Positions 39,787-41,479 of a stretch of 64,000 nt of DNA are shown one piece after another. This stretch comes from Ptiloglossa arizonensis (taxonomy: Eukaryota > Arthropoda > Insecta > Hymenoptera > Colletidae). The position numbers and the translations under genes were made by a program. The stretch is taken from contig NW_027478865.1 in assembly GCF_051014685.1 (NCBI RefSeq), positions 1 to 64,000 on the forward strand, given 5' to 3'. The notes beneath the pieces are model-generated. The model was not told the origin of the DNA. It worked only from the letters and a program-made list of their open reading frames with translations, and made no database searches. How positions within the stretch are numbered: the stretch's first letter is position 1; every line of letters begins with the position of its first letter.

Positions 39787-40288
39787 TTCGCTGGTTTGAT
39801 ACTCGAAACCAATAACTGGAATCGCCCAGGAGAAAAGTACACGCAGCATTGTAATCGGGCGAGTTTCTACTTTCAGATGCAACTGGAATTTCTCGAGTTC
39901 GTCAATCCGTTCGCGACATATGGGACTTTGAAGTTAAGGAATGGTTGAGAAACCATCAAAATTTTCGCTGGTCTGATACTCGAAACCAATAACTGGAATG
40001 GCCTAGGGGAAAAGTACACACACCATTGTAATCGGGCGGGTTTCTACTTTCAGATGCAACAGAAATTTTTCGGATTCGTCAATCCGTTCGCGAAAAATCG
40101 TAGTTTGGATTCAAGAGATGGTTGAGAAACCATCAATATTTTCGCAATTCTGATACTCGAAACCAATAACAACAATGGCCTAGGGGAAGAATACACACAC
40201 CGTTGTAATCGGGAGAGTTTCTACTTTCAGATGCAACAGAAATTTTTCAAATTCGTCAATCCGTTCGCGAAATATCGGAGTTTGGATT
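38690..40288 (+). repeat. Six-monomer duplication, offset 1,062 bp, interrupted by the mobile element
   Basis: About 38,690-39,226 is repeated at 39,752-40,288 (exactly 6 x 177). Shared variants are GGTTTGATACTCG, CGCCCAGGAGAAAAG, CACGCAGCATTG, CGCGAAAAATCG and AACAACAATGGCC. The duplication continues on the far side of the mobile element: the sequence after 41,300 (GATTCAAGAAATGG) matches 39,223 onward. The left copy therefore supplies an empty-site version of the insertion locus. Confidence 0.8.
40285..40288. repeat. Target-site duplication GATT, left
   Basis: GATT precedes the left LTR in satellite sequence. The homologous uninterrupted satellite (39,223-39,226) has a single GATT at this point, followed by CAAGAAATGG. 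Confidence 0.85.
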
Positions 40289-40372
40289 TGTGGCGGCACT
40301 ACCCACGCTTGCCACCAGAGGGAAACTCACCACCAACCGTTTCCCGCAAGTTCCCGTACCTGCTCCGATCGC

Positions 40373-40380
40373 TATATATA
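40373..40380 (+). promoter_or_regulatory. TATA box in left LTR
   Basis: TATATATA in an otherwise GC-rich context. A Pol II start about 30 bp downstream would fall near 40,403, a few bases before the 5' edge of the ribozyme (40,409), so the primary transcript would just include stem III. No initiator element was assigned. Confidence 0.5.
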
Positions 40381-40408
40381 CGACCTCTTACCGATCTTCC
40401 AATGTCCC

Positions 40409-40478
40409 GGCGTATAAGGCAGGGCCTGCTAGGATGCCTTACTGACGAGTCCACTAGCAGGCCCGGGATGAAACGCTT
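40409..40478 (+). ncRNA. Type III hammerhead ribozyme, left LTR copy
   Basis: Self-cleaving RNA. Stem III (open ended) pairs GGCGU 40,409-40,413 with ACGCU 40,473-40,477: four Watson-Crick pairs plus one G-U. The cleavage triplet is GUA, with scission predicted after A40,414. Stem I is a perfect 6-bp helix (TAAGGC 40,415-40,420 with GCCTTA 40,436-40,441). The catalytic core CTGACGA is at 40,442-40,448. Stem II is GTCC 40,449-40,452 with GGAT 40,466-40,469, including a G-U pair at the core. The second core segment GAAA is at 40,470-40,473. Every essential core base is present. Loops I (15 nt) and II (13 nt) share an 11-nt perfect complement, GGGCCTGCTAG 40,422-40,432 with CTAGCAGGCCC 40,454-40,464. 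Stem III is short, as is common in type III hammerheads of retrozymes, which often work best as dimers. Confidence 0.92.
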
Positions 40479-40541
40479 ATCCCCACTCCTTTTCTATTTC
40501 CGTTCTCTCCTACCCTAAACATCTTCTTAGTGCCGCCAAAG

Positions 40542-40554
40542 TGGTGACCCCGTC
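40542..40554 (+). other. Primer-binding site, tRNA-Trp type
   Basis: TGGTGACCCCGTC begins one base after the left LTR. TGG is the complement of the universal CCA tail. The first 11 bases match the complement of the animal tRNA-Trp 3' end (the TGGTGACCCCGACGTG site used by Rous sarcoma virus and many gypsy elements); 12 of 13 bases match overall. Plant tRNA-Trp, as I recall it, would give TGGTGAACCC, a poorer fit. Confidence 0.75.
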
Positions 40555-41037
40555 TAAGAACAACGCAACCTTCTGGACAACAGCACAGCAGCAGTAGAGG
40601 TGCAGCACAAGACGATGGAAGGAACGCAACGTAAAGGCCGATTTTCGTTAATCCCCCTCTCCGAGGGTTGACTCCTCAACCTGCCAGCGACGACACGGAC
40701 GCTATACTCCCGGCTAACCATCAGGATCAACCCCAGGAGGACAGCAGGCAGCTTTGTCGACATTATTCACCGACCACACCGATGCGTTTCATAAATACTG
40801 GTACGCGCACGCATCAACGTCGGACAACAAGCGAAAAACGCGGCTTGAGCAAACGATGCTCGCCACGCGTATTCCGCAATCGACAGCAGCTGGGCCTTAC
40901 TACGAAAAAGAAGCATTCTTCCCTTCCACCGCTCTGGACACCTCCTCCTGTGCCTGTTGTGCCACCGAACAACGGAACAAATACCTACGCCACTGGGGAC
41001 ATCAGGACGGAACTTCAAAGTATCGTTTACCACTGGC

Positions 41038-41044
41038 AAGGGGG
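41038..41044 (+). other. Candidate polypurine tract
   Basis: AAGGGGG (within GGCAAGGGGG) lies three bases (TTA) before the right LTR, the place where plus-strand synthesis is primed in LTR elements. It is short and not directly abutting the LTR, so the call is tentative. Confidence 0.5.
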
Positions 41045-41131
41045 TTATGTGGCGGCACTACCCACGCTTGCCACCAGAGGGAAACTCACCACCAACCGTT
41101 TCCCGCAAGTTCCCGTACCTGCTCCGATCGC

Positions 41132-41139
41132 TATATATA
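41132..41139 (+). promoter_or_regulatory. TATA box in right LTR
   Basis: Second copy of TATATATA. If active it would drive read-through into the neighbouring satellite rather than the element. Confidence 0.4.
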
Positions 41140-41167
41140 CGACCTCTTACCGATCTTCCAATGTCCC

Positions 41168-41237
41168 GGCGTATAAGGCAGGGCCTGCTAGGATGCCTTA
41201 CTGACGAGTCCACTAGCAGGCCCGGGATGAAACGCTT
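41168..41237 (+). ncRNA. Type III hammerhead ribozyme, right LTR copy
   Basis: Identical to the left copy, offset 759 nt. Predicted cleavage is after A41,173; the core CTGACGA lies at 41,201-41,207 and GAAA at 41,229-41,232. Cleavage at both copies would release a 759-nt RNA (40,415-41,173) with 5'-OH and 2',3'-cyclic phosphate ends, suitable for ligation into a circle. Confidence 0.92.
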
Positions 41238-41299
41238 ATCCCCACTCCTTTTCTATTTCCGTTCTCTCCTACCCTAAACATCTTCTTAGTGCCGCCAAA

Positions 41300-41303
41300 G
41301 ATT
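41300..41303. repeat. Target-site duplication GATT, right
   Basis: GATT follows the right LTR and leads into CAAGAAATGGTTGAG, the expected continuation of the interrupted monomer. A 4-bp duplication is in the range usual for Ty3/gypsy-type integrases. The boundary is ambiguous by one base because G also follows the left LTR. Confidence 0.85.
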
Positions 41304-41479
41304 CAAGAAATGGTTGAGAAACCATCAAAATTTTCGCAATTCTGATGCTAGAAACGAATAACTGGAATGGCCTCGGGGAAAAGTACACACACCATTGTAA
41401 TCGAGCGGGTTTCTACTTTCAGATGCAACAGAAATTTTTCGGATTCGTCAATCCGTTCGCAAAAAATCGGAGTTCGGAT

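What the first reader, a model, noticed from the sequence alone, without database searches (positions are those of the whole stretch)
40289..41299. A retrozyme-like LTR element inside a satellite array
A 1,011-bp element with identical 252-bp LTRs, a 4-bp target duplication, a tRNA-type primer site, no coding capacity and a full hammerhead ribozyme in each LTR. LTR retrozymes of this form are known from plants, while the small animal retrozymes I know of are hammerhead tandem repeats without LTRs. With an animal-type tRNA-Trp primer site, this could be an undescribed animal family of LTR retrozymes.
Basis: partly seen in the sequence, partly recalled or inferred. Interest (0 to 1): 0.9.

Follow-up and report, generated by a model that had tools for sequence, protein, structure and literature searches.

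The report
LTR retrozyme inserted in satellite DNA
A one-kilobase, non-coding jumping element sits in a satellite DNA array and carries a self-cutting hammerhead RNA motif in each of its two identical ends; this body plan has been described from plants, but its primer site looks animal, so it may be an undescribed animal kind.

Summary
A 1,011-bp element (40289-41299) interrupts a 177-bp satellite array with a GATT target duplication; the exact 70-bp empty site occurs at two other places in the array. The LTRs are 252/252 identical, no protein family was found in it, and each LTR has a complete type III hammerhead core: 0 of 20,000 LTR shuffles match the descriptor.

Best explanation: a recently inserted LTR retrozyme. 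Its transcript would cut itself in both LTRs into a 759-nt RNA that circularises, is primed by tRNA-Trp and copied by a Ty3/gypsy enzyme in trans. The nested hammerhead fold is 20 kcal/mol weaker than a rival fold.

An animal host is inferred. In the passages I read, animal retrozymes are mostly described as non-LTR with type I hammerheads. New variant of a known kind.

The parts
40285..40288 (.). target site duplication GATT, left copy
   Evidence: Empty-site 70-mer with a single GATT found exactly at 2 other places in the array
40289..40540 (+). 5' LTR, 252 bp; near-perfect terminal inverted repeat TGTGGCGGCACTA / TAGTGCCGCCAAA (12 of 13)
   Evidence: 252/252 identical to the 3' LTR; ends printed
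40373..40380 (+). TATATATA, candidate pol II TATA box; an expected start about 30 nt on (~40401-40406) would lie just upstream of the hammerhead (inference)
   Evidence: motif positions; sequence
40409..40477 (+). type III hammerhead motif in the 5' LTR. Helix III 40409-40413/40473-40477 (4 Watson-Crick pairs plus G-U); cleavage triplet GUA with predicted cut after 40414; helix I 40415-40421/40435-40441 (7 bp); CUGACGA 40442-40448; helix II 40449-40452/40466-40469 (4 bp incl. one G-U); GAAA 40470-40473
40422..40432 (+). loop 1 segment GGGCCUGCUAG, fully complementary to the loop 2 segment
   Evidence: 11-nt run; 4 of 200,000 shuffles of the two loops reach 11
40454..40464 (+). loop 2 segment CUAGCAGGCCC: partner for a loop-loop kissing interaction or, alternatively, for a competing 11-bp hairpin
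40542..40552 (+). primer-binding site TGGTGACCCCG, 11 nt complementary to the 3' end (CCA included) of tRNA-Trp
   Evidence: against human tRNA-Trp as printed in PMC6379413
40563..40575 (+). second tRNA-Trp complementary box ACGCAACCTTCTG (13 nt exact), spaced nearly as in the tRNA
40541..41047 (+). non-coding internal region, 507 bp, 54% GC
41038..41044 (+). short polypurine-tract-like stretch AAGGGGG, followed by TTA before the 3' LTR
   Evidence: sequence; weak, not tested statistically
41048..41299 (+). 3' LTR, 252 bp
41168..41236 (+). type III hammerhead motif in the 3' LTR, predicted cut after 41173
40415..41173 (+). predicted 759-nt unit RNA between the two cleavage sites (circularisation inferred)
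   Evidence: fold more stable than shuffles: z -4.3 linear, 20 shuffles; z -4.9 circular, 60 shuffles
41300..41303 (.). target site duplication GATT, right copy

Best explanation
It is a recently inserted, non-autonomous LTR retrotransposon of the retrozyme kind. Shown from sequence: identical LTRs, GATT target duplication with the empty site present elsewhere in the array, primer site, interior without a recognisable gene, an intact type III hammerhead core in both LTRs. Inferred: RNA polymerase II starts just upstream of the 5' hammerhead from the TATATATA box; the nascent RNA cuts itself after 40414 and again after 41173, giving a 759-nt RNA without repeated ends; a host ligase closes it into a circle; host tRNA-Trp pairs with a bipartite primer site; and the reverse transcriptase and integrase of a Ty3/gypsy-type element copy round the circle, restoring a full LTR without an R-to-R jump, and insert it with a 4-bp duplication. 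Also inferred: the long loop-loop complementarity works two ways, as a (probably partial) kissing interaction that aligns helices I and II for cutting, and as a rival 11-bp hairpin that locks the ribozyme in the finished circle.
For: LTR identity 252/252 and TSD; empty site; two hammerheads, 0 of 20,000 LTR shuffles and 0 in 285 Mb simulated; of the three Rfam matches to E 10 in the element region, two are Hammerhead_3, one in each LTR, and the third (ylbH, E 8) is chance; 11-nt loop complementarity, 4 of 200,000 loop shuffles; primer site 11 nt plus 13 nt against tRNA-Trp, nearly collinear (start-to-start 21 nt here, 24 in the tRNA), score 23.5 against Trp and 7.0 against one tRNA-Gly control; no coding remnant in the frames tested; sense unit RNA folds better than its shuffles, z -4.9, antisense z -2.3, 60 shuffles each. 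Plant LTR retrozymes share 4-bp TSD, PBS, PPT, a non-coding centre of 300-600 bp and hammerheads in the LTRs (passages of PMC4918200; type III stated in PMC7229834), and the transcription start of NbRZ1 lies upstream of its ribozyme (passages of PMC9695139). Pseudoknots between stems I and II are likely in about 40% of the hammerheads surveyed in PMC3088659 (passages).
Against: Only one copy has been seen; whether there are others is unknown. The nested hammerhead fold alone is -13.4 kcal/mol against -33.7 for the best fold of the region, which contains the 11-bp hairpin (worth -23.0 alone); in the MFE of growing transcripts from 40400, stem I was absent at all 17 lengths tested. Activity thus depends on pseudoknot or kinetic effects. 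All 11 loop-loop pairs together with a 7-bp helix I and no linker are sterically doubtful. Helix II closes with G-U where the Rfam consensus has G-C, the triplet is GUA where the consensus has GUC, and the outer pairs of helix III are broken. Helices I and II differ by 3 bp, while type III pseudoknots go with a 2-bp difference in PMC3088659. Only 59% of the circle is predicted paired, below the more than 70% quoted in PMC4918200. The interior alone is also somewhat over-stable (z -3.0), so the fold signal is not due to the LTR alone. The LTRs (252 bp) are shorter than the 300-400 bp of plant retrozymes, and the PBS is tRNA-Trp, not tRNA-Met.
Confidence: 0.78

Rival explanations
1. An ordinary TRIM: an internally deleted derivative of one LTR retrotransposon that moves by the usual linear RNA with R repeats. 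The hammerhead lies in the LTR of the whole family, autonomous member included, and is not needed for movement.
For: Small non-coding LTR elements with 4-bp TSDs exist in ants (PbTRIM, passages of PMC3532108) and chalcid wasps (Helenus, sections 3.3 and 3.6 of PMC10886601), some with tRNA-Trp primer sites and lengths up to 1,263 bp. Copy number and the autonomous partner could not be examined here.
Against: An intact catalytic core with flush helices in an LTR is far from chance, and a ribozyme cutting inside the LTR would destroy the R repeats that the linear route needs (inference). No gag or pol remnant in the frames tested.
Confidence: 0.13
2. The hammerhead is inactive or a by-product: the functional feature is the 11-bp GGGCCTGCTAG hairpin (for instance a structure for packaging, pausing or RNA stability).
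For: The hairpin is part of the minimum-free-energy fold and persists in the circular fold; Rfam score is below the gathering threshold.
Against: The hairpin does not explain CUGANGA, GAAA, the UH triplet and three flush helices together (0 of 20,000 shuffles). Hammerheads with loop-loop pseudoknots have been shown active (passages of PMC3088659, and PMC7936874).
Confidence: 0.07
3. The host is a plant, alga or other non-animal eukaryote and this is a conventional LTR retrozyme that switched primer tRNA. (This rival concerns the host and overlaps with the best explanation of the mechanism.)
For: Body plan, TSD, unit length and GC (759 nt, 54%) are close to plant LTR retrozymes. The host was not identified by any search made.
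Against: PBS begins TGGTGACCCCG as in human tRNA-Trp; plant tRNA-Trp has TGGTGAACCCG there (recalled; a text search gave no source). The satellite shows no CpG depletion (observed/expected 1.15 and 1.28) and, in the left array, no CHG depletion (1388 seen, 1369 expected), unlike heavily methylated plant heterochromatin (the comparison with plants is recalled).
Confidence: 0.15

Closest known systems
Plant LTR retrozymes (Cervera et al. 2016, PMC4918200; NbRZ1, PMC9695139 and PMC12029980)
   Same: Type III hammerhead in each LTR, 4-bp TSD, PBS and PPT, non-coding interior of 300-600 bp, unit RNA of about 700 nt; in NbRZ1 transcription starts upstream of the ribozyme
   Different: PBS for tRNA-Trp in two boxes instead of tRNA-Met; LTR 252 bp, not 300-400; hammerhead with 13-nt loops sharing 11 complementary bases instead of a 6-8-nt and a 4-nt loop with non-Watson-Crick contacts (typical type III as described in PMC7936874); lower predicted pairing (59%)
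Animal non-LTR retrozymes (Cervera and de la Pena 2020, PMC7229834)
   Same: Non-coding, hammerhead-bearing; circular RNA there shown, here only presumed
   Different: Those have type I hammerheads, tandem repeats of 150-450 bp, GC below 50%, no LTR, PBS or PPT, and longer TSDs when present
Animal TRIMs: PbTRIM of ants (PMC3532108) and Helenus of wasps, bivalves, fish and others (PMC10886601)
   Same: Small non-coding LTR elements, 4-bp TSD, PBS and PPT; some wasp Helenus use tRNA-Trp; presumed Gypsy help for Helenus
   Different: The words hammerhead and ribozyme do not occur in the PbTRIM paper; Helenus LTRs carry a tRNA-like sequence, not found here; PbTRIM uses tRNA-Leu
Extended type III hammerheads of termite and toad HDV-like RNAs and of dipteran genomes (PMC7936874)
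   Same: Type III, in animals, Watson-Crick pseudoknot between loops 1 and 2
   Different: Those of toad and termite have a 5-bp helix I, an internal loop and an extra hairpin, with a 4-nt conserved contact; termite genomic copies were isolated motifs; here plain 13-nt loops with 11 complementary bases

Membership tests
LTR retrozyme | Hammerhead (type III in plants) in each LTR | tested here: met
   Two sites, both LTRs; by sequence only, below Rfam's gathering score
LTR retrozyme | 4-bp target site duplication | tested here: met
   GATT, empty site elsewhere
LTR retrozyme | Non-coding interior of about 300-600 bp | tested here: met
   507 bp; no protein family in the 4 frames tested, no relative of the longest
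LTR retrozyme | tRNA primer-binding site after the 5' LTR | tested here: met
   11 nt plus 13 nt to tRNA-Trp; not tRNA-Met as in plants
LTR retrozyme | Polypurine tract before the 3' LTR | tested here: inconclusive
   AAGGGGG then TTA, short
LTR retrozyme | LTR length 300-400 bp (plants) | tested here: not met
   252 bp; a size range, not a mechanism
LTR retrozyme | Self-cleavage and circular RNA | not testable with these tools
   No RNA data
LTR retrozyme | Highly self-paired unit RNA (above 70% of bases) | tested here: not met
   59% paired in the circular fold, though z -4.9
LTR retrozyme | Many copies; LTR ends and PBS shared with Ty3/gypsy elements | not tested
   Own-genome search unanswered in 21 tries
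Animal non-LTR retrozyme | Type I hammerhead in short tandem repeats without LTR or PBS | tested here: not met
   Type III only, LTRs and PBS present; the satellite itself holds no hammerhead by the type I/III descriptor or at Rfam gathering scores
Helenus TRIM | tRNA-like sequence in the LTR | tested here: not met
   No tRNA family match to E 10 in 40200-41400; ARAGORN, run with its bacterial settings, none
TRIM (broad) | Short non-coding LTR element with PBS and PPT, under 1,000 bp as defined in PMC10886601 | tested here: inconclusive
   1,011 bp, just over; the same paper counts elements up to 1,263 bp; compatible with being a retrozyme

The most novel reading that the evidence does not exclude
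An LTR retrozyme of an animal: a type III hammerhead in each LTR, primed by tRNA-Trp through a bipartite site and moved by a Ty3/gypsy partner, with a hammerhead whose loops share 11 complementary bases so that the same sequence can either kiss (cutting form) or form a locking hairpin (circle form).
Probability: 0.55. Interest if true: 0.78.

Novelty: new variant of a known kind. Interest (0 to 1): 0.7.

Why it matters
In the passages I read, LTR retrozymes with type III hammerheads belong to plants and animal retrozymes lack LTRs. An animal LTR retrozyme would show that the two-LTR, circular-RNA route is not a plant speciality, would give a non-plant relative for the proposed link between retrozymes and viroid-like RNAs, and would make that link testable in an animal. 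The bipartite tRNA-Trp site would point to its helper element, and the long loop-loop complementarity offers a simple, testable way for a ribozyme to cut once and then stay shut in a circle.

Tried and rejected
Looked for relatives. Exact LTR start and LTR end plus primer site in viral contigs: none. A 21-base piece of the hammerhead gave 3 viral contigs, but in the parts shown they carry the same stretch with no matching hammerhead around it, and Rfam finds nothing in them at gathering scores: chance. A bipartite tRNA-Trp pattern in viral contigs and genome contigs: none. BLASTN of the element against phages: none. All of these are weak tests, since the collections are of viral, bacterial and archaeal DNA.

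Tried to identify the host: the longest frame of the element (0 of 77 candidates at E<=1), one stop-free satellite frame (0 of 1806), a 22-mer lying in a 24-mer seen 152 times in the array, in genome contigs and viral contigs (none).

Considered and rejected: chance inverted repeat or assembly join (empty site and exact TSD); DNA transposon (LTR direct repeats with primer site); animal non-LTR retrozyme (type III, LTRs); Helenus (no tRNA-like sequence found). The antisense fold has the lower raw energy (-290.7 against -241.9 kcal/mol); against its own shuffles it is less remarkable (z -2.3) than the sense (z -4.9). The test of the second tRNA box was decided after seeing it; its alignment-score form is modest (observed 15.0, best of 5,000 mononucleotide shuffles 14.5), the exact 13-nt run is stronger (about 3e-5 expected by my arithmetic).

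Novelty rests on paper searches in an open-licence library (one search listed 20 of 342 papers; of the 27 papers since 2020 listed I read passages of 9). De la Pena and colleagues named insects among organisms with elements bearing type III hammerheads, 'in preparation' (passage of PMC7761336), so a description may exist elsewhere. I read passages of PMC7229834, PMC4918200, PMC7761336, PMC7936874, PMC3532108, PMC6379413, PMC11722881, PMC9695139, PMC3088659, PMC12029980, PMC13096302 and PMC11721086, and the abstract, passages and sections 3.3 and 3.6 of PMC10886601; none was read whole.

Full report
What is there. The window is a 177-bp satellite array broken once, at 40289-41299. The insert has two identical 252-bp repeats (0 of 252 differences) around a 507-bp interior; both parts are 54% GC against 42% in the left array. 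GATT flanks it on both sides. Joining the flanks with one GATT reproduces a 70-base satellite stretch that occurs exactly at two other places in the array, so this is an insertion with a 4-bp target duplication and not a rearrangement. With 0 of 252 LTR differences, the 95% upper bound on LTR divergence is about 1.2% (my arithmetic), while adjacent satellite copies match at 88-89% in the tandem-repeat scan: the insertion is young.

The hammerhead. Each LTR holds, at 40409-40477 and 41168-41236, a type III hammerhead motif: GUA cleavage triplet, 7-bp helix I, CUGACGA, 4-bp helix II, GAAA, and a 4-5-bp helix III, all flush. A type I/III descriptor finds these two and no other in the window, and none in 20,000 dinucleotide shuffles of the LTR; 285 Mb of simulated sequence gave no type III hit on one strand, where about 0.5 would be expected by my arithmetic. 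Rfam names it Hammerhead_3 in both LTRs but far under its gathering score (22.8 against 48.5 bits), and the gathering-threshold scan of the window is empty. The low score is probably due to the large loops, the G-U closing helix II, the GUA triplet and the broken outer pairs of helix III seen in that alignment; it is a caution nonetheless.

Loops 1 and 2 are 13 nt each and share an 11-nt perfect complementarity; 4 of 200,000 shuffles of the two loops reach that length. The same bases can form a simple 11-bp hairpin, worth -23.0 kcal/mol alone, which is part of the predicted best fold of the isolated region (-33.7) and of the 759-nt circle, while the nested hammerhead alone is worth -13.4, and stem I is absent from the best fold at all 17 lengths of a growing transcript. 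Pseudoknots between stems I and II are common in hammerheads (about 40%, passages of PMC3088659), though in type III they go with a 2-bp difference between the stems and here it is 3; they also occur in extended type III hammerheads of animals (passages of PMC7936874). My reading, which is inference, is a switch: a partial kissing contact in the cutting form, the hairpin as a lock afterwards. Eleven kissing pairs together with a complete helix I and no linker are sterically doubtful, so the kissing form probably uses fewer.

A second new feature. Human tRNA-Trp, as printed in PMC6379413, matches the start of the interior in two blocks: TGGTGACCCCG at 40542 (11 nt, the 3' end with CCA) and ACGCAACCTTCTG at 40563 (13 nt exact), start to start 21 nt here and 24 in the tRNA. 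One tRNA-Gly control scores 7.0 against 23.5. Bipartite primer contacts are known from Ty3 and retroviruses (recalled). This ties the element to tRNA-Trp more firmly than the 11-nt site alone. That the 11-nt block is animal-type rather than plant-type rests on recall of plant tRNA-Trp; a text search for it found nothing useful.

Coding and structure. No protein family reaches its cut-off in the four frames tested, and the longest frame has no relative among 77 candidates. The sense 759-nt RNA folds better than its shuffles (z -4.3 linear, 20 shuffles; z -4.9 circular, 60 shuffles); the antisense less so (z -2.3) and the interior alone in between (z -3.0). The paired fraction, 59%, is below the more than 70% quoted for retrozyme RNAs in PMC4918200. 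There is no polyadenylation signal AATAAA or ATTAAA in the LTR, and a TATATATA lies at 40373-40380, which would start transcription just upstream of the ribozyme (inference); in the plant element NbRZ1 the start lies upstream of the ribozyme (passages).

Mechanism. The parts fit the published retrozyme cycle (passages of PMC4918200): self-cleavage in both LTRs, ligation to a circle, tRNA-primed copying round the circle, insertion by a Ty3/gypsy machinery. Only the DNA anatomy and the insertion are shown; cutting, circle and helper are inferred.

Known or new. The passages I read give LTR retrozymes to plants and describe metazoan ones as non-LTR with type I hammerheads (PMC7229834; PMC7761336; review of December 2024 PMC11722881). 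One 2026 paper writes, in its introduction and citing two of those papers, that plant and animal retrozymes depend on Ty3-like elements and have hammerheads in LTRs (PMC13096302); I take this as loose wording, but it counts against a strict plants-only reading. Animal TRIMs exist, some wasp ones with tRNA-Trp primer sites (PMC10886601). A structure-based search for the HDV-like extended type III hammerhead found none in hymenopterans but some in dipterans (PMC7936874). An LTR retrozyme in an animal would therefore be a new variant of a known kind. Insects were named among organisms with type III hammerhead elements, 'in preparation', so priority is uncertain.

Limits. No second copy was seen in the window, and the own-genome search did not complete in 21 calls.

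Noticed in passing
window 1-40284 and 41305-64000: The satellite monomer is 177 bp, i.e. 59 codons, and some stretches stay open over several monomers (4 satellite frames of 176 aa); no protein relatives were found for one of them, so this is probably only a consequence of the period.
   Followed up: partly
window 1-64000: CpG in the satellite is above expectation (1.15 left, 1.28 right of the element) and CHG in the left array is not depleted, suggesting a host that does not methylate this array heavily.
   Followed up: partly
window, GGATTCAAGA variant, 35 places: Only a minority of monomers carry the GGATTCAAGA variant at the insertion site; whether the variant clusters near the element or reflects higher-order repeats was not examined.
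   Followed up: no
40289-40301 and 40528-40540: The LTR has a long terminal inverted repeat (12 of 13 bases) and ends in AAA instead of the usual CA (the usual end is recalled).
   Followed up: no
2241, 25766, 26294, 31418, 31769, 32475: A few monomer spacings are 2-4 bases short (one of 173, five of 175, among 355 intervals).
   Followed up: no
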